Shown here: piece by piece, positions 1,649 to 61,182 of the stretch | Layout of the letters: each line of letters begins with the position of its first letter | Position numbering within the stretch: the first letter of the stretch is position 1 | DNA from: Diadema setosum | Lineage: Eukaryota; Echinodermata; Echinoidea; Diadematoida; Diadematidae | Assembly: GCA_033980235.1 (NCBI GenBank) | Contig: CM067070.1 | Span: forward strand, 30,352,594 to 30,416,593 | Length of the DNA: 64,000 bases | Direction of reading: 5' to 3' | The notes under the pieces: generated by a model | The model's input: only the letters and a program-made list of their open reading frames with translations | What the model was told of the DNA's origin: nothing | Databases searched by the model: none | Made by a program: the position numbers and the translations under genes

Positions 1649-1662
1649 TGACCTGGGCTATT
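1649..1662 (+). repeat. Left 14-bp direct repeat (putative target-site duplication)
   Basis: The sequence TGACCTGGGCTATT occurs here and again at 15629-15642, in the same orientation, exactly at the two ends of the 268-bp array. The central CCTGGGC is not part of the repeat unit. The outer TGA and TATT also match the adjoining unit, so the true duplication could be as short as 7 bp. The inferred empty site would read 'agacTTGACCTGGGCTATTtcc'. Confidence 0.7.
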
Positions 1663-1775
1663 CAAATTCATGATTTTCTTCCGTCGAGATGTTTTCATTG
1701 CAACTGATTGACAAATTGCCCTACATCGACGTAAATAAGCACTGAATTGATCAGTGTTTTAGTAGTAGCCATGAT

Positions 1776-1781
1776 AAAAAA
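1776..1781 (-). terminator. T6 Pol III terminator of array copy 1 (repeats every 268 bp)
   Basis: Reading the minus strand, six T residues begin 14 nt after the tRNA-like 3' end and sit at the loop of the hairpin CCATGAT/ATCATGG. A run of at least four T is the known Pol III stop signal. The run is kept in every copy I read. Confidence 0.7.
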
Positions 1782-1794
1782 TCATGGGCGTACA

Positions 1795-1866
1795 AACTCG
1801 TGCAGGATTCGAACCCTCGACCTCCTGATCACCGGACAGACGTCATCTCCACTAGACCACCGAGCT
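1795..1866 (-). ncRNA. tRNA-like Pol III gene, array copy 1 (variant)
   Basis: This is a 72-nt tRNA-like body on the minus strand with a perfect A box (TGGTCTAGTGG) and a perfect B box (GGTTCGAATCC). An acceptor-like stem (AGCTCGG at the 5' end against the last seven bases), a 4-bp D stem (GTCT/AGAT) and a T arm with one mismatch can be drawn. The anticodon arm does not close into a 5-bp stem with a 7-nt loop, and the base at the expected position 33 is not U, so a decoding tRNA is unlikely. A SINE head or non-decoding Pol III RNA fits better. Copies recur at 1795+268(k-1) for k=1 to 44. Copies 1 and 3 share two substitutions in the 3' acceptor strand, which restore pair 1-72 but break pair 7-66. 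Confidence 0.75.
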
Positions 1867-1895
1867 TTCGCCCGAAAGCAAGTGTTGGTTCTAAT

Positions 1896-1902
1896 CCTTA
1901 TA
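1896..1902 (-). promoter_or_regulatory. Upstream TATA-like box of array copy 1 (repeats every 268 bp)
   Basis: On the minus strand TATAAGG lies at -36 to -30 relative to the first base of the tRNA-like body. This is the distance at which upstream TATA elements assist Pol III initiation in some lineages. Its use here is inferred. Confidence 0.45.
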
Positions 1903-2062
1903 GCATGCAGCGGGTACTGCTTTTGTTATTCAAATTCATGATTTTCTTCCGTCGAGATGTTTTCATTGCAACTGATTGACAAATTGCCCTACATCGACGT
2001 AAATAAGCACTGAATTGATCAGTGTTTTAGTAGTAGCCATGATAAAAAATCATGGGCGTACA

Positions 2063-2134
2063 TACTCGAGCAGGATTCGAACCCTCGACCTCCTGATCAC
2101 CGGACAGACGTCATCTCCACTAGACCACCGAGCT
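2063..2134 (-). ncRNA. tRNA-like Pol III gene, array copy 2 (consensus form)
   Basis: This copy represents the majority sequence found in nearly all other units. It has the same A and B boxes as copy 1, with the 3' acceptor strand reading TCGAGTA. The same 72 nt recur at 268-bp steps to the end of the forward block. Confidence 0.75.
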
Positions 2135-5100
2135 TTCGCCCGAAAGCAAGTGTTGGTTCTAATCCTTATAGCATGCAGCGGGTACTGCTTTTGTTATTCA
2201 AATTCATGATTTTCTTCCGTCGAGATGTTTTCATTGCAACTGATTGACAAATTGCCCTACATCGACGTAAATAAGCACTGAATTGATCAGTGTTTTAGTA
2301 GTAGCCATGATAAAAAATCATGGGCGTACAAACTCGTGCAGGATTCGAACCCTCGACCTCCTGATCACCGGACAGACGTCATCTCCACTAGACCACCGAG
2401 CTTTCGCCCGAAAGCAAGTGTTGGTTCTAATCCTTATAGCATGCAGCGGGTACTGCTTTTGTTATTCAAATTCATGATTTTCTTCCGTCGAGATGTTTTC
2501 ATTGCAACTGATTGACAAATTGCCCTACATCGACGTAAATAAGCACTGAATTGATCAGTGTTTTAGTAGTAGCCATGATAAAAAATCATGGGCGTACATA
2601 CTCGAGCAGGATTCGAACCCTCGACCTCCTGATCACCGGACAGACGTCATCTCCACTAGACCACCGAGCTTTCGCCCGAAAGCAAGTGTTGGTTCTAATC
2701 CTTATAGCATGCAGCGGGTACTGCTTTTGTTATTCAAATTCATGATTTTCTTCCGTCGAGATGTTTTCATTGCAACTGATTGACAAATTGCCCTACATCG
2801 ACGTAAATAAGCACTGAATTGATCAGTGTTTTAGTAGTAGCCATGATAAAAAATCATGGGCGTACATACTCGAGCAGGATTCGAACCCTCGACCTCCTGA
2901 TCACCGGACAGACGTCATCTCCACTAGACCACCGAGCTTTCGCCCGAAAGCAAGTGTTGGTTCTAATCCTTATAGCATGCAGCGGGTACTGCTTTTGTTA
3001 TTCAAATTCATGATTTTCTTCCGTCGAGATGTTTTCATTGCAACTGATTGACAAATTGCCCTACATCGACGTAAATAAGCACTGAATTGATCAGTGTTTT
3101 AGTAGTAGCCATGATAAAAAATCATTGGCGTACATACTCGAGCAGGATTCGAACCCTCGACCTCCTGATCACCGGACAGACGTCATCTCCACTAGACCAC
3201 CGAGCTTTCGCCCGAAAGCAAGTGTTGGTTCTAATCCTTATAGCATGCAGCGGGTACTGCTTTTGTTATTCAAATTCATGATTTTCTTCCGTCGAGATGT
3301 TTTCATTGCAACTGATTGACAAATTGCCCTACATCGACGTAAATAAGCACTGAATTGATCAGTGTTTTAGTAGTAGCCATGATAAAAAATCATGGGCGTA
3401 CATACTCGAGCAGGATTCGAACCCTCGACCTCCTGATCACCGGACAGACGTCATCTCCACTAGACCACCGAGCTTTCGCCCGTAAGCAAGTGTTGGTTCT
3501 AATCCTTATAGCATGCAGCGGGTACTGCTTTTGTTATTCAAATTCATGATTTTCTTCCGTCGAGATGTTTTCATTGCAACTGATTGACAAATTGCCCTAC
3601 ATCGACGTAAATAAGCACTGAATTGATCAGTGTTTTAGTAGTAGCCATGATAAAAAATCATGGGCGTACATACTCGAGCAGGATTCGAACCCTCGACCTC
3701 CTGATCACCGGACAGACGTCATCTCCACTAGACCACCGAGCTTTCGCCCGAAAGCAAGTGTTGGTTCTAATCCTTATAGCATGCAGCGGGTACTGCTTTT
3801 GTTATTCAAATTCATGATTTTCTTCCGTCGAGATGTTTTCATTGCAACTGATTGACAAATTGCCCTACATCGACGTAAATAAGCACTGAATTGATCAGTG
3901 TTTTAGTAGTAGCCATGATAAAAAATCATGGGCGTACATACTCGAGCAGGATTCGAACCCTCGACCTCCTGATCACCGGACAGACGTCATCTCCACTAGA
4001 CCACCGAGCTTTCGCCCGAAAGCAAGTGTTGGTTCTAATCCTTATAGCATGCAGCGGGTACTGCTTTTGTTATTCAAATTCATGATTTTCTTCCGTCGAG
4101 ATGTTTTCATTGCAACTGATTGACAAATTGCCCTACATCGACGTAAATAAGCACTGAATTGATCAGTGTTTTAGTAGTAGCCATGATAAAAAATCATGGG
4201 CGTACATACTCGAGCAGGATTCGAACCCTCGACCTCCTGATCACCGGACAGACGTCATCTCCACTAGACCACCGAGCTTTCGCCCGAAAGCAAGTGTTGG
4301 TTCTAATCCTTATAGCATGCAGCGGGTACTGCTTTTGTTATTCAAATTCATGATTTTCTTCCGTCGAGATGTTTTCATTGCAACTGATTGACAAATTGCC
4401 CTACATCGACGTAAATAAGCACTGAATTGATCAGTGTTTTAGTAGTAGCCATGATAAAAAATCATGGGCGTACATACTCGAGCAGGATTCGAACCCTCGA
4501 CCTCCTGATCACCGGACAGACGTCATCTCCACTAGACCACCGAGCTTTCGCCCGAAAGCAAGTGTTGGTTCTAATCCTTATAGCATGCAGCGGGTACTGC
4601 TTTTGTTATTCAAATTCATGATTTTCTTCCGTCGAGATGTTTTCATTGCAACTGATTGACAAATTGCCCTACATCGACGTAAATAAGCACTGAATTGATC
4701 AGTGTTTTAGTAGTAGCCATGATAAAAAATCATGGGCGTACATACTCGAGCAGGATTCGAACCCTCGACCTCCTGATCACCGGACAGACGTCATCTCCAC
4801 TAGACCACCGAGCTTTCGCCCGAAAGCAAGTGTTGGTTCTAATCCTTATAGCATGCAGCGGGTACTGCTTTTGTTATTCAAATTCATGATTTTCTTCCGT
4901 CGAGATGTTTTCATTGCAACTGATTGACAAATTGCCCTACATCGACGTAAATAAGCACTGAATTGATCAGTGTTTTAGTAGTAGCCATGATAAAAAATCA
5001 TGGGCGTACATACTCGAGCAGGATTCGAACCCTCGACCTCCTGATCACCGGACAGACGTCATCTCCACTAGACCACCGAGCTTTCGCCCGAAAGCAAGTG

Positions 5101-8100
5101 TTGGTTCTAATCCTTATAGCATGCAGCGGGTACTGCTTTTGTTATTCAAATTCATGATTTTCTTCCGTCGAGATGTTTTCATTGCAACTGATTGACAAAT
5201 TGCCCTACATCGACGTAAATAAGCACTGAATTGATCAGTGTTTTAGTAGTAGCCATGATAAAAAATCATGGGCGTACATACTCGAGCAGGATTCGAACCC
5301 TCGACCTCCTGATCACCGGACAGACGTCATCTCCACTAGACCACCGAGCTTTCGCCCGAAAGCAAGTGTTGGTTCTAATCCTTATAGCATGCAGCGGGTA
5401 CTGCTTTTGTTATTCAAATTCATGATTTTCTTCCGTCGAGATGTTTTCATTGCAACTGATTGACAAATTGCCCTACATCGACGTAAATAAGCACTGAATT
5501 GATCAGTGTTTTAGTAGTAGCCATGATAAAAAATCATGGGCGTACATACTCGAGCAGGATTCGAACCCTCGACCTCCTGATCACCGGACAGACGTCATCT
5601 CCACTAGACCACCGAGCTTTCGCCCGAAAGCAAGTGTTGGTTCTAATCCTTATAGCATGCAGCGGGTACTGCTTTTGTTATTCAAATTCATGATTTTCTT
5701 CCGTCGAGATGTTTTCATTGCAACTGATTGACAAATTGCCCTACATCGACGTAAATAAGCACTGAATTGATCAGTGTTTTAGTAGTAGCCATGATAAAAA
5801 ATCATGGGCGTACATACTCGAGCAGGATTCGAACCCTCGACCTCCTGATCACCGGACAGACGTCATCTCCACTAGACCACCGAGCTTTCGCCCGAAAGCA
5901 AGTGTTGGTTCTAATCCTTATAGCATGCAGCGGGTACTGCTTTTGTTATTCAAATTCATGATTTTCTTCCGTCGAGATGTTTTCATTGCAACTGATTGAC
6001 AAATTGCCCTACATCGACGTAAATAAGCACTGAATTGATCAGTGTTCTAGTAGTAGCCATGATAAAAAATCATGGGCGTACATACTCGAGCAGGATTCGA
6101 ACCCTCGACCTCCTGATCACCGGACAGACGTCATCTCCACTAGACCACCGAGCTTTCGCCCGAAAGCAAGTGTTGGTTCTAATCCTTATAGCATGCAGCG
6201 GGTACTGCTTTTGTTATTCAAATTCATGATTTTCTTCCGTCGAGATGTTTTCATTGCAACTGATTGACAAATTGCCCTACATCGACGTAAATAAGCACTG
6301 AATTGATCAGTGTTCTAGTAGTAGCCATGATAAAAAATCATGGGCGTACATACTCGAGCAGGATTCGAACCCTCGACCTCCTGATCACCGGACAGACGTC
6401 ATCTCCACTAGACCACCGAGCTTTCGCCCGAAAGCAAGTGTTGGTTCTAATCCTTATAGCATGCAGCGGGTACTGCTTTTGTTATTCAAATTCATGATTT
6501 TCTTCCGTCGAGATGTTTTCATTGCAACTGATTGACAAATTGCCCTACATCGACGTAAATAAGCACTGAATTGATCAGTGTTTTAGTAGTAGCCATGATA
6601 AAAAATCATGGGCGTACATACTCGAGCAGGATTCGAACCCTCGACCTCCTGATCACCGGACAGACGTCATCTCCACTAGACCACCGAGCTTTCGCCCGAA
6701 AGCAAGTGTTGGTTCTAATCCTTATAGCATGCAGCGGGTACTGCTTTTGTTATTCAAATTAATGATTTTCTTCCGTCGAGATGTTTTCATTGCAACTGAT
6801 TGACAAATTGCCCTACATCGACGTAAATAAGCACTGAATTGATCAGTGTTTTAGTAGTAGCCATGATAAAAAATCATGGGCGTACATACTCGAGCAGGAT
6901 TCGAACCCTCGACCTCCTGATCACCGGACAGACGTCATCTCCACTAGACCACCGAGCTTTCGCCCGAAAGCAAGTGTTGGTTCTAATCCTTATAGCATGC
7001 AGCGGGTACTGCTTTTGTTATTCAAATTCATGATTTTCTTCCGTCGAGATGTTTTCATTGCAACTGATTGACAAATTGCCCTACATCGACGTAAATAAGC
7101 ACTGAATTGATCAGTGTTTTAGTAGTAGCCATGATAAAAAATCATGGGCGTACATACTCGAGCAGGATTCGAACCCTCGACCTCCTGATCACCGGACAGA
7201 CGTCATCTCCACTAGACCACCGAGCTTTCGCCCGAAAGCAAGTGTTGGTTCTAATCCTTATAGCATGCAGCGGGTACTGCTTTTGTTATTCAAATTCATG
7301 ATTTTCTTCCGTCGAGATGTTTTCATTGCAACTGATTGACAAATTGCCCTACATCGACGTAAATAAGCACTGAATTGATCAGTGTTTTAGTAGTAGCCAT
7401 GATAAAAAATCATGGGCGTACATACTCGAGCAGGATTCGAACCCTCGACCTCCTGATCACCGGACAGACGTCATCTCCACTAGACCACCGAGCTTTCGCC
7501 CGAAAGCAAGTGTTGGTTCTAATCCTTATAGCATGCAGCGGGTACTGCTTTTGTTATTCAAATTCATGATTTTCTTCCGTCGAGATGTTTTCATTGCAAC
7601 TGATTGACAAATTGCCCTACATCGACGTAAATAAGCACTGAATTGATCAGTGTTTTAGTAGTAGCCATGATAAAAAATCATGGGCGTACATACTCGAGCA
7701 GGATTCGAACCCTCGACCTCCTGATCACCGGACAGACGTCATCTCCACTAGACCACCGAGCTTTCGCCCGAAAGCAAGTGTTGGTTCTAATCCTTATAGC
7801 ATGCAGCGGGTACTGCTTTTGTTATTCAAATTCATGATTTTCTTCCGTCGAGATGTTTTCATTGCAACTGATTGACAAATTGCCCTACATCGACGTAAAT
7901 AAGCACTGAATTGATCAGTGTTTTAGTAGTAGCCATGATAAAAAATCATGGGCGTACATACTCGAGCAGGATTCGAACCCTCGACCTCCTGATCACCGGA
8001 CAGACGTCATCTCCACTAGACCACCGAGCTTTCGCCCGAAAGCAAGTGTTGGTTCTAATCCTTATAGCATGCAGCGGGTACTGCTTTTGTTATTCAAATT

Positions 8101-11100
8101 CATGATTTTCTTCCGTCGAGATGTTTTCATTGCAACTGATTGACAAATTGCCCTACATCGACGTAAATAAGCACTGAATTGATCAGTGTTTTAGTAGTAG
8201 CCATGATAAAAAATCATGGGCGTACATACTCGAGCAGGATTCGAACCCTCGACCTCCTGATCACCGGACAGACGTCATCTCCACTAGACCACCGAGCTTT
8301 CGCCCGAAAGCAAGTGTTGGTTCTAATCCTTATAGCATGCAGCGGGTACTGCTTTTGTTATTCAAATTCATGATTTTCTTCCGTCGAGATGTTTTCATTG
8401 CAACTGATTGACAAATTGCCCTACATCGACGTAAATAAGCACTGAATTGATCAGTGTTTTAGTAGTAGCCATGATAAAAAATCATGGGCGTACATACTCG
8501 AGCAGGATTCGAACCCTCGACCTCCTGATCACCGGACAGACGTCATCTCCACTAGACCACCGAGCTTTCGCCCGAAAGCAAGTGTTGGTTCTAATCCTTA
8601 TAGCATGCAGCGGGTACTGCTTTTGTTATTCAAATTCATGATTTTCTTCCGTCGAGATGTTTTCATTGCAACTGATTGACAAATTGCCCTACATCGACGT
8701 AAATAAGCACTGAATTGATCAGTGTTTTAGTAGTAGCCATGATAAAAAATCATGGGCGTACATACTCGAGCAGGATTCGAACCCTCGACCTCCTGATCAC
8801 CGGACAGACGTCATCTCCACTAGACCACCGAGCTTTCGCCCGAAAGCAAGTGTTGGTTCTAATCCTTATAGCATGCAGCGGGTACTGCTTTTGTTATTCA
8901 AATTCATGATTTTCTTCCGTCGAGATGTTTTCATTGCAACTGATTGACAAATTGCCCTACATCGACGTAAATAAGCACTGAATTGATCAGTGTTTTAGTA
9001 GTAGCCATGATAAAAAATCATGGGCGTACATACTCGAGCAGGATTCGAACCCTCGACCTCCTGATCACCGGACAGACGTCATCTCCACTAGACCACCGAG
9101 CTTTCGCCCGAAAGCAAGTGTTGGTTCTAATCCTTATAGCATGCAGCGGGTACTGCTTTTGTTATTCAAATTCATGATTTTCTTCCGTCGAGATGTTTTC
9201 ATTGCAACTGATTGACAAATTGCCCTACATCGACGTAAATAAGCACTGAATTGATCAGTGTTTTAGTAGTAGCCATGATAAAAAATCATGGGCGTACATA
9301 CTCGAGCAGGATTCGAACCCTCGACCTCCTGATCACCGGACAGACGTCATCTCCACTAGACCACCGAGCTTTCGCCCGAAAGCAAGTGTTGGTTCTAATC
9401 CTTATAGCATGCAGCGGGTACTGCTTTTGTTATTCAAATTCATGATTTTCTTCCGTCGAGATGTTTTCATTGCAACTGATTGACAAATTGCCCTACATCG
9501 ACGTAAATAAGCACTGAATTGATCAGTGTTTTAGTAGTAGCCATGATAAAAAATCATGGGCGTACATACTCGAGCAGGATTCGAACCCTCGACCTCCTGA
9601 TCACCGGACAGACGTCATCTCCACTAGACCACCGAGCTTTCGCCCGAAAGCAAGTGTTGGTTCTAATCCTTATAGCATGCAGCGGGTACTGCTTTTGTTA
9701 TTCAAATTCATGATTTTCTTCCGTCGAGATGTTTTCATTGCAACTGATTGACAAATTGCCCTACATCGACGTAAATAAGCACTGAATTGATCAGTGTTTT
9801 AGTAGTAGCCATGATAAAAAATCATGGGCGTACATACTCGAGCAGGATTCGAACCCTCGACCTCCTGATCACCGGACAGACGTCATCTCCACTAGACCAC
9901 CGAGCTTTCGCCCGAAAGCAAGTGTTGGTTCTAATCCTTATAGCATGCAGCGGGTACTGCTTTTGTTATTCAAATTCATGATTTTCTTCCGTCGAGATGT
10001 TTTCATTGCAACTGATTGACAAATTGCCCTACATCGACGTAAATAAGCACTGAATTGATCAGTGTTTTAGTAGTAGCCATGATAAAAAATCATGGGCGTA
10101 CATACTCGAGCAGGATTCGAACCCTCGACCTCCTGATCACCGGACAGACGTCATCTCCACTAGACCACCGAGCTTTCGCCCGAAAGCAAGTGTTGGTTCT
10201 AATCCTTATAGCATGCAGCGGGTACTGCTTTTGTTATTCAAATTCATGATTTTCTTCCGTCGAGATGTTTTCATTGCAACTGATTGACAAATTGCCCTAC
10301 ATCGACGTAAATAAGCACTGAATTGATCAGTGTTTTAGTAGTAGCCATGATAAAAAATCATGGGCGTACATACTCGAGCAGGATTCGAACCCTCGACCTC
10401 CTGATCACCGGACAGACGTCATCTCCACTAGACCACCGAGCTTTCGCCCGAAAGCAAGTGTTGGTTCTAATCCTTATAGCATGCAGCGGGTACTGCTTTT
10501 GTTATTCAAATTCATGATTTTCTTCCGTCGAGATGTTTTCATTGCAACTGATTGACAAATTGCCCTACATCGACGTAAATAAGCACTGAATTGATCAGTG
10601 TTTTAGTAGTAGCCATGATAAAAAATCATGGGCGTACATACTCGAGCAGGATTCGAACCCTCGACCTCCTGATCACCGGACAGACGTCATCTCCACTAGA
10701 CCACCGAGCTTTCGCCCGAAAGCAAGTGTTGGTTCTAATCCTTATAGCATGCAGCGGGTACTGCTTTTGTTATTCAAATTCATGATTTTCTTCCGTCGAG
10801 ATGTTTTCATTGCAACTGATTGACAAATTGCCCTACATCGACGTAAATAAGCACTGAATTGATCAGTGTTTTAGTAGTAGCCATGATAAAAAATCATGGG
10901 CGTACATACTCGAGCAGGATTCGAACCCTCGACCTCCTGATCACCGGACAGACGTCATCTCCACTAGACCACCGAGCTTTCGCCCGAAAGCAAGTGTTGG
11001 TTCTAATCCTTATAGCATGCAGCGGGTACTGCTTTTGTTATTCAAATTCATGATTTTCTTCCGTCGAGATGTTTTCATTGCAACTGATTGACAAATTGCC

Positions 11101-13318
11101 CTACATCGACGTAAATAAGCACTGAATTGATCAGTGTTTTAGTAGTAGCCATGATAAAAAATCATGGGCGTACATACTCGAGCAGGATTCGAACCCTCGA
11201 CCTCCTGATCACCGGACAGACGTCATCTCCACTAGACCACCGAGCTTTCGCCCGAAAGCAAGTGTTGGTTCTAATCCTTATAGCATGCAGCGGGTACTGC
11301 TTTTGTTATTCAAATTCATGATTTTCTTCCGTCGAGATGTTTTCATTGCAACTGATTGACAAATTGCCCTACATCGACGTAAATAAGCACTGAATTGATC
11401 AGTGTTTTAGTAGTAGCCATGATAAAAAATCATGGGCGTACATACTCGAGCAGGATTCGAACCCTCGACCTCCTGATCACCGGACAGACGTCATCTCCAC
11501 TAGACCACCGAGCTTTCGCCCGAAAGCAAGTGTTGGTTCTAATCCTTATAGCATGCAGCGGGTACTGCTTTTGTTATTCAAATTCATGATTTTCTTCCGT
11601 CGAGATGTTTTCATTGCAACTGATTGACAAATTGCCCTACATCGACGTAAATAAGCACTGAATTGATCAGTGTTTTAGTAGTAGCCATGATAAAAAATCA
11701 TGGGCGTACATACTCGAGCAGGATTCGAACCCTCGACCTCCTGATCACCGGACAGACGTCATCTCCACTAGACCACCGAGCTTTCGCCCGAAAGCAAGTG
11801 TTGGTTCTAATCCTTATAGCATGCAGCGGGTACTGCTTTTGTTATTCAAATTCATGATTTTCTTCCGTCGAGATGTTTTCATTGCAACTGATTGACAAAT
11901 TGCCCTACATCGACGTAAATAAGCACTGAATTGATCAGTGTTTTAGTAGTAGCCATGATAAAAAATCATGGGCGTACATACTCGAGCAGGATTCGAACCC
12001 TCGACCTCCTGATCACCGGACAGACGTCATCTCCACTAGACCACCGAGCTTTCGCCCGAAAGCAAGTGTTGGTTCTAATCCTTATAGCATGCAGCGGGTA
12101 CTGCTTTTGTTATTCAAATTCATGATTTTCTTCCGTCGAGATGTTTTCATTGCAACTGATTGACAAATTGCCCTACATCGACGTAAATAAGCACTGAATT
12201 GATCAGTGTTTTAGTAGTAGCCATGATAAAAAATCATGGGCGTACATACTCGAGCAGGATTCGAACCCTCGACCTCCTGATCACCGGACAGACGTCATCT
12301 CCACTAGACCACCGAGCTTTCGCCCGAAAGCAAGTGTTGGTTCTAATCCTTATAGCATGCAGCGGGTACTGCTTTTGTTATTCAAATTCATGATTTTCTT
12401 CCGTCGAGATGTTTTCATTGCAACTGATTGACAAATTGCCCTACATCGACGTAAATAAGCACTGAATTGATCAGTGTTTTAGTAGTAGCCATGATAAAAA
12501 ATCATGGGCGTACATACTCGAGCAGGATTCGAACCCTCGACCTCCTGATCACCGGACAGACGTCATCTCCACTAGACCACCGAGCTTTCGCCCGAAAGCA
12601 AGTGTTGGTTCTAATCCTTATAGCATGCAGCGGGTACTGCTTTTGTTATTCAAATTCATGATTTTCTTCCGTCGAGATGTTTTCATTGCAACTGATTGAC
12701 AAATTGCCCTACATCGACGTAAATAAGCACTGAATTGATCAGTGTTTTAGTAGTAGCCATGATAAAAAATCATGGGCGTACATACTCGAGCAGGATTCGA
12801 ACCCTCGACCTCCTGATCACCGGACAGACGTCATCTCCACTAGACCACCGAGCTTTCGCCCGAAAGCAAGTGTTGGTTCTAATCCTTATAGCATGCAGCG
12901 GGTACTGCTTTTGTTATTCAAATTCATGATTTTCTTCCGTCGAGATGTTTTCATTGCAACTGATTGACAAATTGCCCTACATCGACGTAAATAAGCACTG
13001 AATTGATCAGTGTTTTAGTAGTAGCCATGATAAAAAATCATGGGCGTACATACTCGAGCAGGATTCGAACCCTCGACCTCCTGATCACCGGACAGACGTC
13101 ATCTCCACTAGACCACCGAGCTTTCGCCCGAAAGCAAGTGTTGGTTCTAATCCTTATAGCATGCAGCGGGTACTGCTTTTGTTATTCAAATTCATGATTT
13201 TCTTCCGTCGAGATGTTTTCATTGCAACTGATTGACAAATTGCCCTACATCGACGTAAATAAGCACTGAATTGATCAGTGTTTTAGTAGTAGCCATGATA
13301 AAAAATCATGGGCGTACA

Positions 13319-13390
13319 TACTCGAGCAGGATTCGAACCCTCGACCTCCTGATCACCGGACAGACGTCATCTCCACTAGACCACCGAGCT
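13319..13390 (-). ncRNA. tRNA-like Pol III gene, array copy 44 (last forward)
   Basis: This is the last minus-strand copy before the orientation switch and is identical to the consensus copy. Its upstream TATA-like box lies immediately inside the left arm of the giant inverted repeat, which ends at 13427. Confidence 0.75.
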
Positions 13391-13427
13391 TTCGCCCGAA
13401 AGCAAGTGTTGGTTCTAATCCTTATAG

Positions 13428-13547
13428 CATGCAGCGGGTACTGCTTTTGTTATTCAAATTCATGATTTTCTTCCGTCGAGATGTTTTCATTGCAACTGAT
13501 TGACAAATTGCCCTACATCGACGTAAATAAGCACTGAATTGATTAAT
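13428..13547. other. 120-bp loop at the head-to-head inversion
   Basis: Base 13427 (end of CTTATAG) and base 13548 (start of CTATAAG) are the innermost paired bases of the inverted repeat. The loop is ordinary forward unit up to 13543, then TAAT (13544-13547), which belongs to neither unit. It creates the palindrome GATTAATC at the junction. The arms, about 11343-13427 and 13548-15631, appear identical apart from one deleted base. Confidence 0.9.
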
Positions 13548-13584
13548 CTATAAGGATTAGAACCAACACTTGCTTTCGGGCGAA

Positions 13585-13656
13585 AGCTCGGTGGTCTAGT
13601 GGAGATGACGTCTGTCCGGTGATCAGGAGGTCGAGGGTTCGAATCCTGCTCGAGTA
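13585..13656 (+). ncRNA. tRNA-like Pol III gene, first inverted copy
   Basis: This is the consensus 72-nt tRNA-like body with perfect A and B boxes, a TATA-like box just upstream (from 13550) and the T6 run about 14 nt downstream. It is divergently oriented with respect to the last forward copy at 13319-13390. Confidence 0.75.
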
Positions 13657-14924
13657 TGTACGCCCATGATTTTTTATCATGGCTACTACTAAAACACTGA
13701 TCAATTCAGTGCTTATTTACGTCGATGTAGGGCAATTTGTCAATCAGTTGCAATGAAAACATCTCGACGGAAGAAAATCATGAATTTGAATAACAAAAGC
13801 AGTACCCGCTGCATGCTATAAGGATTAGAACCAACACTTGCTTTCGGGCGAAAGCTCGGTGGTCTAGTGGAGATGACGTCTGTCCGGTGATCAGGAGGTC
13901 GAGGGTTCGAATCCTGCTCGAGTATGTACGCCCATGATTTTTTATCATGGCTACTACTAAAACACTGATCAATTCAGTGCTTATTTACGTCGATGTAGGG
14001 CAATTTGTCAATCAGTTGCAATGAAAACATCTCGACGGAAGAAAATCATGAATTTGAATAACAAAAGCAGTACCCGCTGCATGCTATAAGGATTAGAACC
14101 AACACTTGCTTTCGGGCGAAAGCTCGGTGGTCTAGTGGAGATGACGTCTGTCCGGTGATCAGGAGGTCGAGGGTTCGAATCCTGCTCGAGTATGTACGCC
14201 CATGATTTTTTATCATGGCTACTACTAAAACACTGATCAATTCAGTGCTTATTTACGTCGATGTAGGGCAATTTGTCAATCAGTTGCAATGAAAACATCT
14301 CGACGGAAGAAAATCATGAATTTGAATAACAAAAGCAGTACCCGCTGCATGCTATAAGGATTAGAACCAACACTTGCTTTCGGGCGAAAGCTCGGTGGTC
14401 TAGTGGAGATGACGTCTGTCCGGTGATCAGGAGGTCGAGGGTTCGAATCCTGCTCGAGTATGTACGCCCATGATTTTTTATCATGGCTACTACTAAAACA
14501 CTGATCAATTCAGTGCTTATTTACGTCGATGTAGGGCAATTTGTCAATCAGTTGCAATGAAAACATCTCGACGGAAGAAAATCATGAATTTGAATAACAA
14601 AAGCAGTACCCGCTGCATGCTATAAGGATTAGAACCAACACTTGCTTTCGGGCGAAAGCTCGGTGGTCTAGTGGAGATGACGTCTGTCCGGTGATCAGGA
14701 GGTCGAGGGTTCGAATCCTGCTCGAGTATGTACGCCCATGATTTTTTATCATGGCTACTACTAAAACACTGATCAATTCAGTGCTTATTTACGTCGATGT
14801 AGGGCAATTTGTCAATCAGTTGCAATGAAAACATCTCGACGGAAGAAAATCATGAATTTGAATAACAAAAGCAGTACCCGCTGCATGCTATAAGGATTAG
14901 AACCAACACTTGCTTTCGGGCGAA

Positions 14925-14995
14925 AGCTCGGTGGTCTAGTGGAGATGACGTCTGTCCGGTGATCAGGAGGTCGAGGGTTCAATCCTGCTCGAGTA
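14925..14995 (+). ncRNA. tRNA-like gene with a damaged B box
   Basis: One G is missing from the B box, which reads 'gggttcaatcc' near 14977-14987, so this unit is 267 bp long. Loss of the invariant G of TTCGA is expected to weaken TFIIIC binding. It is the only length change noticed in the array. Confidence 0.75.
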
Positions 14996-15459
14996 TGTAC
15001 GCCCATGATTTTTTATCATGGCTACTACTAAAACACTGATCAATTCAGTGCTTATTTACGTCGATGTAGGGCAATTTGTCAATCAGTTGCAATGAAAACA
15101 TCTCGACGGAAGAAAATCATGAATTTGAATAACAAAAGCAGTACCCGCTGCATGCTATAAGGATTAGAACCAACACTTGCTTTCGGGCGAAAGCTCGGTG
15201 GTCTAGTGGAGATGACGTCTGTCCGGTGATCAGGAGGTCGAGGGTTCGAATCCTGCTCGAGTATGTACGCCCATGATTTTTTATCATGGCTACTACTAAA
15301 ACACTGATCAATTCAGTGCTTATTTACGTCGATGTAGGGCAATTTGTCAATCAGTTGCAATGAAAACATCTCGACGGAAGAAAATCATGAATTTGAATAA
15401 CAAAAGCAGTACCCGCTGCATGCTATAAGGATTAGAACCAACACTTGCTTTCGGGCGAA

Positions 15460-15531
15460 AGCTCGGTGGTCTAGTGGAGATGACGTCTGTCCGGTGATCA
15501 GGAGGTCGAGGGTTCGAATCCTGCTCGAGTA
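15460..15531 (+). ncRNA. tRNA-like Pol III gene, last inverted copy
   Basis: This is the rightmost copy, of consensus sequence, followed by T6 and then about 80 bp of unit before the array stops at 15631. Confidence 0.75.
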
Positions 15532-15628
15532 TGTACGCCCATGATTTTTTATCATGGCTACTACTAAAACACTGATCAATTCAGTGCTTATTTACGTCGA
15601 TGTAGGGCAATTTGTCAATCAGTTGCAA

Positions 15629-15642
15629 TGACCTGGGCTATT
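15629..15642 (+). repeat. Right 14-bp direct repeat (putative target-site duplication)
   Basis: This second copy of TGACCTGGGCTATT is in the same orientation as 1649-1662 and is followed by non-array DNA ('tcctaacttttcc'). Confidence 0.7.
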
Positions 15643-15867: not shown

Positions 15868-16960
15868 CCTTGATTTCCAAAGCGAAAAGATGTAGCTACA
15901 AACGGCAGTTTTAGGACTGTAAAATTTTCAAGCTGGCTCGCTCTCCTGATTTTGCTGCCAGTAATTGCCAGCAGTTGCGCCCAGTGCGCCCCCATCCCTT
16001 ACTTTCCAAAGCGAAAAAAAGTATAGCTACAAACGGCAGTTTTTGGACTGTAAAATGTCAAAATTTTCAAACTCGCTTGCTCCGCTCGCTCGCATTTAAT
16101 CGTTATATCATTCTCCTGATGTTGATGCCAGTAATTGCCAGCACTGCCAGCAGTTGCGCCCCGGTGCGCCCCACCCCCTTAATTTCCTAAGCGAAAAAAA
16201 TATAGCTACAAACGGCCATTTTTGGACTGTACAATGTCCAAATTTTCAAGCTCGCTTGCTTCGCTCGCTCGCATTTGATCGTCATGCCATTCTCCTGATG
16301 TTACTGCCGGGTAATTGCCAGCAGTTGTGCCCGGTTCACCTCCCCCATCCCCCCCCCCCCTTAATTTTCAAAGCGAAAAAATATAGCTACAAACGGCAGT
16401 TTTTGGACTGTAAAATGTCAAAATTTTGAAGCTCGCTCGCTTCGCTCGCTCGCATTTAATCGTTAAGTCATTCTCCTGATGTTGCTGCCAGTAATTGCCA
16501 CCAGTTGCGCCCGGTGCGCCCCCACCCCCCTTAATTTCCAAAGCAAAAAAAAAATAATAATAAATATATATATATAGCTACAAACGGCAGTTTTGGACTG
16601 TAAAATGTCAAAATTTTCAAGCTCGCTTGCTTCGCTCGCTCGCATTTAATCGTCATGCCATTCTCCTGATGTTGCTGCCAGTAATTGCCAGCAGTTGTGC
16701 CCGGTGCGCCTCCCCCTCCCTTAATTTTCAAAGCGAAAAAATATAGCTACAAACGGCAGTTTTTGGACCGTAAAATGTCAACATTCTCAAACTCTCTCGC
16801 TTCGCTCGCTGGCATTTAATCGTTATGTCATTCTCCCGATGTTGCTGCCAGTAATTGCCAGCAGTTGCGCCCGATGCGCCCCCCTTAATTGCCTAAGCGA
16901 AAAAATATAGGCCTAGTATACAAACGGCCTTTTGGGGACTGCACATTGTCAAAATTCATG
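15868..16960 (+). repeat. CTCGCTCG-type ~175-185-bp tandem repeat, about 6 copies
   Basis: Each unit reads, in order: AAAGCGAAAAAATATAGC, TACAAACGGCAGTTTTTGG, AAATGTCAAAATTTTCAAGC, CTCGCTTCGCTCGCTCGC, a stretch around CTCCTGATGTTGCTGCCAG, and a C-rich junction. Starts lie near 15876, 16000, 16181, 16362, 16533, 16722 and 16886; the first unit is internally deleted. Solitary copies of the same unit appear at 60862-61182 and at the window end, so this is a dispersed family that has amplified locally. Open frames in it are repeat-derived. Confidence 0.85.
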
Positions 16961-28072: not shown

Positions 28073-28187
28073 TGGTTATGGTTATGGTTATGGTTAGGGT
28101 TAGGGTTGGGGTTAGGGTTAGGGTTAGGGTTAGGGTTTGATGGTTAGGGTTAGGATTAGGATTAGGGTTAGGTTTAGGGATAGGGTC
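28073..28187 (+). repeat. Interstitial telomeric (TTAGGG)n tract
   Basis: A run of GGTTAT, then mostly TTAGGG hexamers with variants (TTGGGG, TTAGGA, TTTAGGG). It occurs only in copy A, in place of about 190 bp present in copies B and C, so it replaced sequence instead of simply inserting. Confidence 0.9.
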
Positions 28188-45833: not shown

Positions 45834-46131
45834 GGACTGCTCCCCCGGAGGACAACTCCCCCGGAGGACTACTCCCCCAGAGGATGTCTCCCCCGGAGGA
45901 CAACTCCCCCGGAGGACCACTCCCCCGGGGGACCACTCCCCCGGTGGACCACTCCCCCGGGGGACCACTCCCCTGGAGGACCACTCCCCTGGAGGACCAC
46001 TCCCCCGGGGACAACTCCCCCGAAGGACCACTCCCCCGGGGACAACTCCCCCGGGGACAACTCCCCCGGAAGACTACTCCCCCGGAGGACTGCTCCCCCG
46101 GAGGACCACTCCCCCCGAGGACAACTCCCCC
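45834..46131 (+). repeat. 16-bp GC-rich minisatellite, ~19 units
   Basis: The unit is close to GGACNACTCCCCCGGA, repeated about 19 times with point changes and a few one-base losses. Because 16 is not a multiple of 3 and the unit has no stop, long Pro/Gly-rich frames appear on both strands. These are artefacts. Confidence 0.95.
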
Positions 46132-60861: not shown

Positions 60862-61182
60862 CAAAAGCGAAAAATATAGCTACAAACGGCAGTTTTTGGA
60901 GTGTAAAATTTAAAAATTTTAAAGCTCGCTCGCTCCGCTCGCTCGCATTTAACCGCTATGCCATTCTCCTGATGTTGCTGCCAGTGATTGACAGCAGGTG
61001 CACCCGGTGCGCCCCCCTTAATTTCTAAAGTGAAAATATAGCTACAAACGACAGTTTTTAGGACTGGAAATGTCAAAATTTTCAAGCTCACTCGCTTCGC
61101 TCGCTAGCATTTAATCAGTATGCCATTCTCCTGATGTTGCTGCCAGTAATTGCCGGCAGTTGCGCCCGGTGTGCCCCCTTAA
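60862..61182 (+). repeat. Two units of the CTCGCTCG-type repeat
   Basis: Same order of landmarks as the 15.87-16.96 kb tandem (TAGCTACAAACGGCAG, CTCGCTCG block, CTCCTGATGTTGCTGCCAG). Confidence 0.85.

What the first reader, a model, noticed from the sequence alone, without database searches (positions are those of the whole stretch)
1659..15631. A 14-kb battery of about 52 near-identical tRNA-like Pol III cassettes
Each 268-bp unit has a perfect A box, a perfect B box and a T6 terminator, but the anticodon arm does not fold. The array is therefore unlikely to supply decoding tRNA. It could be a satellite born from a SINE head, a TFIIIC-binding boundary element built from many B boxes, or the source of an undescribed abundant small RNA of about 85-95 nt.
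Basis: partly seen in the sequence, partly recalled or inferred. Interest (0 to 1): 0.87.

Follow-up and report, generated by a model that had tools for sequence, protein, structure and literature searches.

The report
tRNA-headed element inserted like Penelope
The tandem array is probably not a bank of tRNA genes but one very young copy of a small mobile element that sits in an animal-like genome as back-to-back tandem arms bearing the insertion scars of Penelope-type retrotransposons, which matters because it suggests how such minimal RNA parasites copy a tiny template many times.

Summary
The 52 near-identical 268-bp units are real: 44 on the minus strand (1659-13543), 8 on the plus strand (13548-15631), head-to-head with a 4-bp filler. 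The block sits inside a 14-bp target-site duplication. In the same unnamed 886-Mb genome I examined 39 further loci (of 609 candidate regions). 33 of 40 loci have flanking duplications of 9 bp or more; 30 of 40 are two-armed, none tail-to-tail overall. Outer ends are fixed: in 28 of 30 two-armed arrays one end is at unit site A (~169) and the other at site B (~207); none is A/A or B/B. Inner ends look random. Units are more alike within a locus (mean 0.5%, median 0.3%) than between loci (1.7%). So both strands of the target were extended on one repeating RNA. This is the signature of Penelope-like elements (PLE): head-to-head arms, a 'tail' on one arm only, target duplications. PLEs of the same genome (RT plus GIY-YIG) show the one-sided tail in 6 of 6 pairs checked. 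Best reading: a non-autonomous, SINE-like, PLE-mobilised element, probably copied from circular RNA. It resembles metazoan retrozymes but has a tRNA-like Pol III head and no recognisable complete hammerhead. Partner PLE and circular RNA are not shown.

The parts
1649..1662 (.). left copy of target-site duplication TGACCTGGGCTATT (last 4 bases shared with the array end)
15629..15642 (.). right copy of the target-site duplication (first 3 bases shared with the array end)
1659..13543 (-). left arm: 44.35 tandem units of 268 bp; outer end at unit position 207 (site B)
13544..13547 (.). 4-bp filler TAAT at the head-to-head junction
13548..15631 (+). right arm: 7.78 tandem units; outer end at unit position 171 (site A)
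1866..2133 (-). reference unit (commonest form, 43 of 52), position 1 at 2133
2062..2134 (-). example tRNA-like head (Rfam tRNA, 32.6 bits)
2117..2127 (-). A box TGGTCTAGTGG of that unit
   Evidence: sequence
2073..2083 (-). B box GGTTCGAATCC of that unit
   Evidence: sequence
2044..2049 (-). T6, possible Pol III terminator, of that unit
   Evidence: sequence
2128..2138 (-). CGAAAGCTCGG at a unit boundary, identical to the 3' part of the hammerhead of one PLE family of the same genome (possible relic)

Best explanation
The block is one recent insertion of a small non-autonomous retroelement mobilised by Penelope-like (RT plus GIY-YIG) machinery. SHOWN from sequence: flanking duplications of mostly 12-15 bp at AA..TT sites, as a staggered cut with 3' overhangs would leave; both sides carry element DNA running antisense from the flank, so the arms are head-to-head; one arm starts at site A and the other at site B, about 36 nt apart; inner ends look random; the two arms of a locus are as alike as units of one arm. 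INFERRED: a PLE enzyme dimer cuts both strands and starts reverse transcription from both ends at its two neighbouring start sites (the PLE 'tail' interval); each polymerase goes round a monomeric circular RNA several times, giving tandem cDNA; the two cDNA ends are joined in the middle. The tRNA-like head is a Pol III promoter and/or an RNA-processing module. The element is a selfish parasite; no host function is needed to explain it.
For: Orientation: of 40 loci (39 fetched + window) 30 run from '<' to '>' and 10 are one-armed; none runs from '>' to '<' overall; L033 and L042 are compound '<><>'. Flanking duplications >=9 bp at 32 of 39 loci, >=12 bp at 27 of 39, against 39 and 7 of 1482 mismatched flank pairs; L047, left out there because the fetched stretch cut it, adds one of 9 bp. 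Ends: the 30 two-armed loci gave 20 B/A, 7 A/B, 0 A/A, 0 B/B and 3 with an end outside the A/B windows, which were set; the missing end of L047 was then read by eye as B, making 28 of 30. 9 of 10 one-armed loci end at A or B. Inner ends do not depart from uniform (40 ends, KS p 0.44). Target motif symmetric: TSD ends TT in 21 of 32, T at +2 in 25 of 32, A at -2 in 22 of 32. Divergence per locus: 0.5% within arms (26 loci; median 0.3%, max 2.6%), 0.4% across arms (12 loci), against 1.7% for 561 locus pairs. Of 70 within-locus variable sites in 17 loci, 58 are in one unit only and 55 occur in no unit of another locus. The genome has 76 GIY-YIG matches (150 of 265 candidates scored) with frames up to 1204 aa; one 1202-aa frame has RVT_1 and C-terminal GIY-YIG. 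GIY-YIG neighbours within 9 kb are 15 '-+', 0 '+-', 4 '++', 1 '--'. 6 of 6 PLE pairs examined (of the 15; four families) carry a tail on one arm only; the two not inserted in (TA)n have 14- and 15-bp duplications. Print: a purified PLE cuts and extends both strands, prefers ATT, and has two RT start sites bounding the 30-40-bp tail (PMC11167929, parts 1-2 of 4 read); PLE copies with inverted pLTR, a 31-bp tail on one and 8-10-bp TSDs (PMC3846280, passages).
Against: No PLE sharing the A-B sequence was found: PLE 3' ends of 11 loci gave no significant match, and the genome search with the A-B stretch did not complete. Two of 30 two-armed arrays do not fit A/B: L030 has a 14-bp duplication, one end at B and the other near position 79; L039 pairs a poorly matching B end with one near 28 and has no duplication. 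PMC11167929 saw no difference in start site between strands, so strict A/B pairing was not predicted by it. 15 of 34 locus consensuses equal that of another locus (substitutions only), and some loci are as diverse inside (up to 2.6%) as loci are from each other, so 'one monomer per insertion' is a tendency. A common stem around site A in element and PLEs was tested and not supported. No complete hammerhead or other ribozyme, though Rfam also missed PLE hammerheads, so that negative is weak. The T-run would stop a Pol III transcript before A and B. Circularity is inferred, not seen. Window units 1 and 3 share a two-base variant absent from unit 2, which a single pure template does not predict. 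B/A versus A/B is 20:7 where strand symmetry predicts equality.
Confidence: 0.82

Rival explanations
1. Insertion as above, but of only one or a few units per arm; the 44 + 8 copies then arose in place by unequal crossing-over or replication slippage, not by multi-lap reverse transcription.
For: Adjacent units 17 and 18 share a private variant and units 1 and 3 share another, which looks like local duplication or conversion. Tandem arrays are known to change length (recalled). The window array is by far the longest of the 40.
Against: Many other loci are multi-unit too, the two oppositely oriented arms are as alike as units of one arm, and most variants are in single units (58 of 70), i.e. near-uniform from birth. 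L018: 6 of 6 full units identical over both arms.
Confidence: 0.25
2. Linear multimeric read-through RNA of a donor array, not a circle, is the PLE template.
For: PLE RT starts internally on unprocessed RNA in vitro (PMC11167929). No ribozyme found in the unit. Homogeneous donor arrays exist, and 15 of 34 locus consensuses equal another's.
Against: The window consensus equals only that of L013 among 33 other loci with full units, and L013 has about 6.5 units; unit variants of one locus are seldom found in another (15 of 70 in any unit, 3 of 70 as a consensus).
Confidence: 0.33
3. Ordinary LINE-mobilised SINE with twin priming.
For: Twin priming also gives head-to-head inversions with target duplications (recalled); tRNA-like head with A and B boxes.
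Against: Second start site is fixed about 36 nt from the first in 28 of 30; no poly-A or simple-repeat 3' tail as a rule; unit is tandem; internal T-run.
Confidence: 0.06
4. Integration of extrachromosomal DNA concatemers.
For: Tandem, inverted and homogeneous.
Against: Fixed outer ends with paired A/B usage, symmetric target motif and regular duplications are not expected from end joining of random DNA circles.
Confidence: 0.03
5. Functional Pol III battery or TFIIIC boundary kept by selection.
For: A box in 210 of 211, B box in 181 of 211, runs of 5 or more T in 206 of 211 units, 50 of them from the window.
Against: The family is dispersed and near-identical throughout, so conservation of the boxes is uninformative; variable positions among locus consensuses are 9 of 72 in the head, 9 of 19 in the trailer with T-run, and 4 of 49, 4 of 32, 4 of 35 and 11 of 60 in the rest.
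Confidence: 0.05

Closest known systems
Endonuclease-containing Penelope-like elements (Penelope/Poseidon type, GIY-YIG)
   Same: Head-to-head arms, tail on one arm, target duplication; those of this genome show the same plan.
   Different: Unit is 268 bp, non-coding, up to 44 laps per arm, with a tRNA-like head; no shared start-site sequence with the PLEs sampled; flanks are AA..TT sites while four of the six PLE pairs lie in (TA)n.
Metazoan non-LTR retrozymes (PMC7229834, passages and Discussion)
   Same: Small (150-450 bp), low-GC tandem repeats from dimers to tens of units, target duplications above 4 bp, proposed circRNA template and PLE mobilisation.
   Different: Defining type I hammerhead not found; tRNA-like Pol III head present; no insertion-end analysis of this kind in the passages read.
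Sm-alpha of schistosomes and similar hammerhead satellites (recalled)
   Same: Tandem, dispersed, Pol III-type boxes plus hammerhead (recalled).
   Different: No complete hammerhead here; no sequence compared.
tRNA-derived SINEs; SINE-derived satellites (PMC10702118, abstract start seen only)
   Same: tRNA-like head with A and B boxes; can become tandem.
   Different: No LINE tail or poly-A as a rule, internal T-run, tandem at insertion, PLE-type ends.

Membership tests
Penelope-like element (autonomous) | ORF with RT and GIY-YIG endonuclease | tested here: not met
   a 268-bp unit cannot hold one; its frames are short; hence at most a non-autonomous partner
PLE-type insertion | head-to-head inverted arms | tested here: met
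   30 of 40 loci two-armed, all '<' to '>' overall
PLE-type insertion | tail of about 30-40 nt on one arm only | tested here: met
   A/B pairing in 28 of 30 two-armed arrays, 0 A/A, 0 B/B
PLE-type insertion | target-site duplication | tested here: met
   32 of 39 with >=9 bp against 39 of 1482 control pairs
PLE-type insertion | start-site sequence shared with a PLE of the same genome | tested here: inconclusive
   none in the PLE ends sampled; genome-wide query unanswered
Metazoan retrozyme | type I hammerhead ribozyme | tested here: not met
   no CTGANGA on either strand; Rfam negative, a weak test; only the 11-mer CGAAAGCTCGG
Metazoan retrozyme | 150-450-bp tandem repeats of low GC | tested here: met
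   268 bp, about 43-44% GC
Metazoan retrozyme | monomeric circular RNA in cells | not testable with these tools
   no RNA data
tRNA-derived SINE | internal Pol III A and B boxes | tested here: met
   A 210 of 211, B 181 of 211 units
tRNA-derived SINE | interspersed monomer with LINE-type or poly-A 3' tail | tested here: not met
   ends at A or B without such a tail; LINE match itself not searched
decoding tRNA gene | normal cloverleaf | tested here: not met
   32.6-35 bits; non-standard pairs marked in all four arms of the three units aligned

The most novel reading that the evidence does not exclude
A retrozyme-like class in which a tRNA-like module has taken the hammerhead's place (its 5' end lies within about 4 nt of where, by my reading, a PLE hammerhead would cleave, CGAAAGCTC|GG): host tRNA enzymes cut multimers to monomers, the monomer is closed to a circle, and the two reverse transcriptases of one PLE dimer start 36 nt apart on the same circle and chase each other round it for up to tens of laps, writing both arms at once.
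Probability: 0.2. Interest if true: 0.9.

Novelty: new variant of a known kind. Interest (0 to 1): 0.74.

Why it matters
How metazoan retrozymes and other minimal tandem elements move has been a proposal (PLE enzymes on circular RNA). Here dozens of insertions appear to record the reaction: both DNA ends primed, two fixed start sites used once each, many laps per arm. That makes two-sided PLE priming and the circular-template idea directly testable, and suggests that some homogeneous 'satellite' arrays can be born long in one insertion event instead of growing only by unequal exchange.

Tried and rejected
Hammerhead or other ribozyme in the unit: Rfam at E<=1 on the first three units and at E<=0.5 on 13 of 39 loci, and a direct core scan: none. 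The only trace is an 11-mer shared with a clear PLE hammerhead (L056, L057) and with the same place of a second PLE family that lacks a CTGATGA (L052, L059) (0 copies in 48.3 kb of background); it may equally belong to the tRNA-like acceptor stem. A common stem around site A in the element and four PLE families: one of five sequences beat shuffles (15 of 300 shuffles as good or better), the others did not (120 to 288 of 300), so rejected. Self-pairing of the family consensus as a circle: z -2.85 sense, -2.10 antisense, suggestive only. Pfam on 10 window frames: no family. One window frame against 5.8 billion proteins: nothing. Exact 23-mer of the head in viral and prokaryote collections: 0 hits. 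Species not identified; that it is an animal is inference. Decoding tRNA, DNA concatemers and assembly artefact considered and put low for reasons given.

Mended on checking: an earlier figure of 0.2% within-locus divergence was weighted by unit pairs and so by the window; per-locus means are used now. The count 28 of 28 became 28 of 30. Because locus consensuses are often shared, I raised the linear-template rival from 0.30 to 0.33 and lowered the novel case from 0.22 to 0.20.

Papers: PMC11167929 parts 1-2 of 4 read; PMC7229834 passages and Discussion; PMC7761336 passages; PMC3846280 passages; all others seen as listing and abstract start only. Ten searches were made (one search listed nothing); no title or abstract start listed there describes a tRNA-headed PLE-mobilised tandem element; that is the whole basis of the novelty claim.
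Full report
What is there. The block at 1659-15631 consists of 268-bp units: 44.35 on the minus strand, a 4-bp filler, then 7.78 on the plus strand. 43 of 52 units are full-length and identical; the last, partial unit is identical over its 171 bases; the other eight differ by one or two bases or, in one case, a 1-bp deletion. Each unit has a tRNA-like head with A box, B box and a T6 at positions 85-90. Rfam's tRNA model finds 51 of the 52 units at 32.6-35 bits; in the three units aligned there are non-standard pairs in every arm, but 4 of 5 anticodon-stem pairs are kept. The block as a whole is flanked by the direct repeat TGACCTGGGCTATT, 14 bp, of which 4 and 3 bases are shared with the array ends.

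It is a dispersed family. The genome holding the window (G000, 885.7 Mb, unnamed) has at least 281 matches at 39 scored regions out of 609 candidates, so everything below is a sample of the best-matching loci. I fetched those 39 loci with flanks and analysed them with the window: 40 loci.

Anatomy of an insertion. 30 of 40 loci have a '<' arm first and a '>' arm last, 10 have one arm, none is ordered '>' to '<' overall; L033 and L042 are compound '<><>'. A direct repeat of 9 bp or more lies at the array ends of 32 of 39 loci, and of 12 bp or more at 27; when left and right flanks of different loci are paired the numbers are 39 and 7 of 1482. A few of these repeats are low-complexity (L023, L036). 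L047 was left out because the fetched stretch cut it; its missing end gives a 9-bp repeat. Of the 32 repeats 27 measure 12-15 bp, 22 of them 12 or 13. The outer ends map to two narrow places in the unit, A (159-177) and B (196-214). With windows set after seeing those positions, the 30 two-armed loci give 20 B/A, 7 A/B, none A/A or B/B, and 3 with an end elsewhere; one of the three, L047, shows a B end by eye once completed. So 28 of 30 pair A with B. The exceptions are L030, with a good 14-bp duplication, B on one side and an end near position 79 on the other, and L039, poorly matching and without a duplication. 9 of 10 one-armed loci end at A or B. Inner ends do not depart from an even spread (40 ends with at most 2 mismatches in 40; KS p 0.44; 7 in the A/B windows against 6.7 expected). 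The target site is symmetric: duplications end in TT (21 of 32), T follows at +2 (25 of 32), A precedes at -2 (22 of 32).

One template per insertion. From 34 loci I extracted 211 full units, 50 of them from the window; 6 loci gave none. Mean divergence per locus is 0.5% within an arm (26 loci, median 0.3%, maximum 2.6%) and 0.4% between the two arms (12 loci), against 1.7% between loci (561 locus pairs). In 17 loci with at least 5 units, 58 of 70 variable sites are in a single unit and 55 of 70 variants occur in no unit of any other locus examined. This looks like arrays that begin as near-pure repeats of one monomer and then collect private mutations. It is not absolute: 15 of 34 locus consensuses equal that of another locus. 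The window's consensus equals that of L013, 2 Mb away, and these are the only two of 34 loci with the pair 26T/49A; L013 has about 6.5 units, so a linear RNA from it could not have given 44 + 8 units in one pass. Against the simple picture, window units 1 and 3 share a two-base variant that unit 2 lacks, and units 17 and 18 share another, so some later exchange or a mixed template is likely.

Mechanism. Both sides of a staggered break carry antisense element DNA. That is two-sided target-primed reverse transcription. Ordinary LINE twin priming also yields head-to-head copies (recalled), but its second start is not fixed. Penelope-like elements do much the same: a purified PLE cuts and extends both strands, prefers ATT, and starts reverse transcription at two neighbouring internal sites that bound the genomic 'tail', though without a difference between strands in vitro (PMC11167929); genomic copies have an inverted pLTR, short TSDs and a 31-bp tail on one of the inverted copies (PMC3846280). 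This genome is rich in PLEs: 76 GIY-YIG matches from 150 of 265 candidates scored, frames up to 1204 aa; [quoted passage not shown] of neighbours within 9 kb, 15 are '-+' and none '+-'. In 6 of 6 PLE pairs examined, out of 15 and from four families, one arm is longer by a tail (33-38 nt in two, 51 in one, roughly 37-58 in the others by my reading of the printed ends); four lie in (TA)n, and the two that do not have 14- and 15-bp duplications. I infer that PLE machinery mobilises the 268-bp element. How one enzyme pair writes up to 44 units in an arm is best explained by a small circular RNA copied for many laps, as proposed for metazoan retrozymes (PMC7229834); this step is not shown.

What does not fit or is missing. 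No PLE sharing the A-B sequence was found in 11 PLE loci, and the genome query for it did not complete. No complete ribozyme was found in the unit, but Rfam also missed evident PLE hammerheads in L055, L056 and L057, so an unusual one cannot be excluded. The 11-mer CGAAAGCTCGG of the unit is identical to the 3' part of a clear PLE hammerhead (L056, L057) and to the same place in a second, degenerate family (L052, L059); it may be a relic or may belong to the tRNA-like acceptor stem. A run of 5 or more T is kept in 206 of 211 units, so a Pol III transcript would end before the start sites; full-length template RNA needs read-through or another promoter. The 20:7 strand imbalance is unexplained. 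Conservation within so young a family says nothing about function of the boxes.

Comparison. It works like a PLE insertion and like a metazoan retrozyme, but is a member of neither by strict definition: it has no PLE ORF and no recognisable type I hammerhead. It is not an ordinary SINE (no LINE tail seen, tandem at birth) and not a tRNA gene. I file it as a new variant: a tRNA-headed, PLE-mobilised, retrozyme-like element.

Noticed in passing
window 1659-13543, units 1 and 3: Units 1 and 3 share two substitutions (65A, 71T) absent from unit 2 and from the other window units; a mixed or dimeric template, or conversion, would be needed.
   Followed up: partly
L013-L051 and window (30 two-armed loci): B/A versus A/B orientation is 20:7; strand symmetry predicts equality.
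   Followed up: no
L030: Two-armed array with a 14-bp target duplication whose right end is near unit position 79 and not at A or B: the clear exception to A/B pairing.
   Followed up: no
L052, L053 (G000 C20:22154630-22171565): PLE array with 4152-bp unit, open 1202-aa frame (RVT_1 + GIY-YIG), '<<>>' order, inserted in (TA)n; tail 51 nt.
   Followed up: yes
L055, L056, L057 (also L065, L066, L068, L069; one in the flank of L025): PLE hammerheads (CTGATGA..GAAA with stem II); Rfam 15 did not report those in L055-L057 at E<=1; the others were not scanned.
   Followed up: partly
unit position 168 onward: An ATG at site A opens a 22-codon basic frame (MKTSRRKKIMNLNNK...), reminiscent of the PLE start codon lying near the tail; could be chance.
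   Followed up: no
window 28074-28186: Interstitial telomere-like repeat (GGTTAG), about 18 copies.
   Followed up: no
window 15942-16883 and 60871-61182: Another tandem repeat family (periods about 162-170 and 360) in two places of the window.
   Followed up: no
window 45840-46131: 16-bp minisatellite, open in several frames.
   Followed up: no
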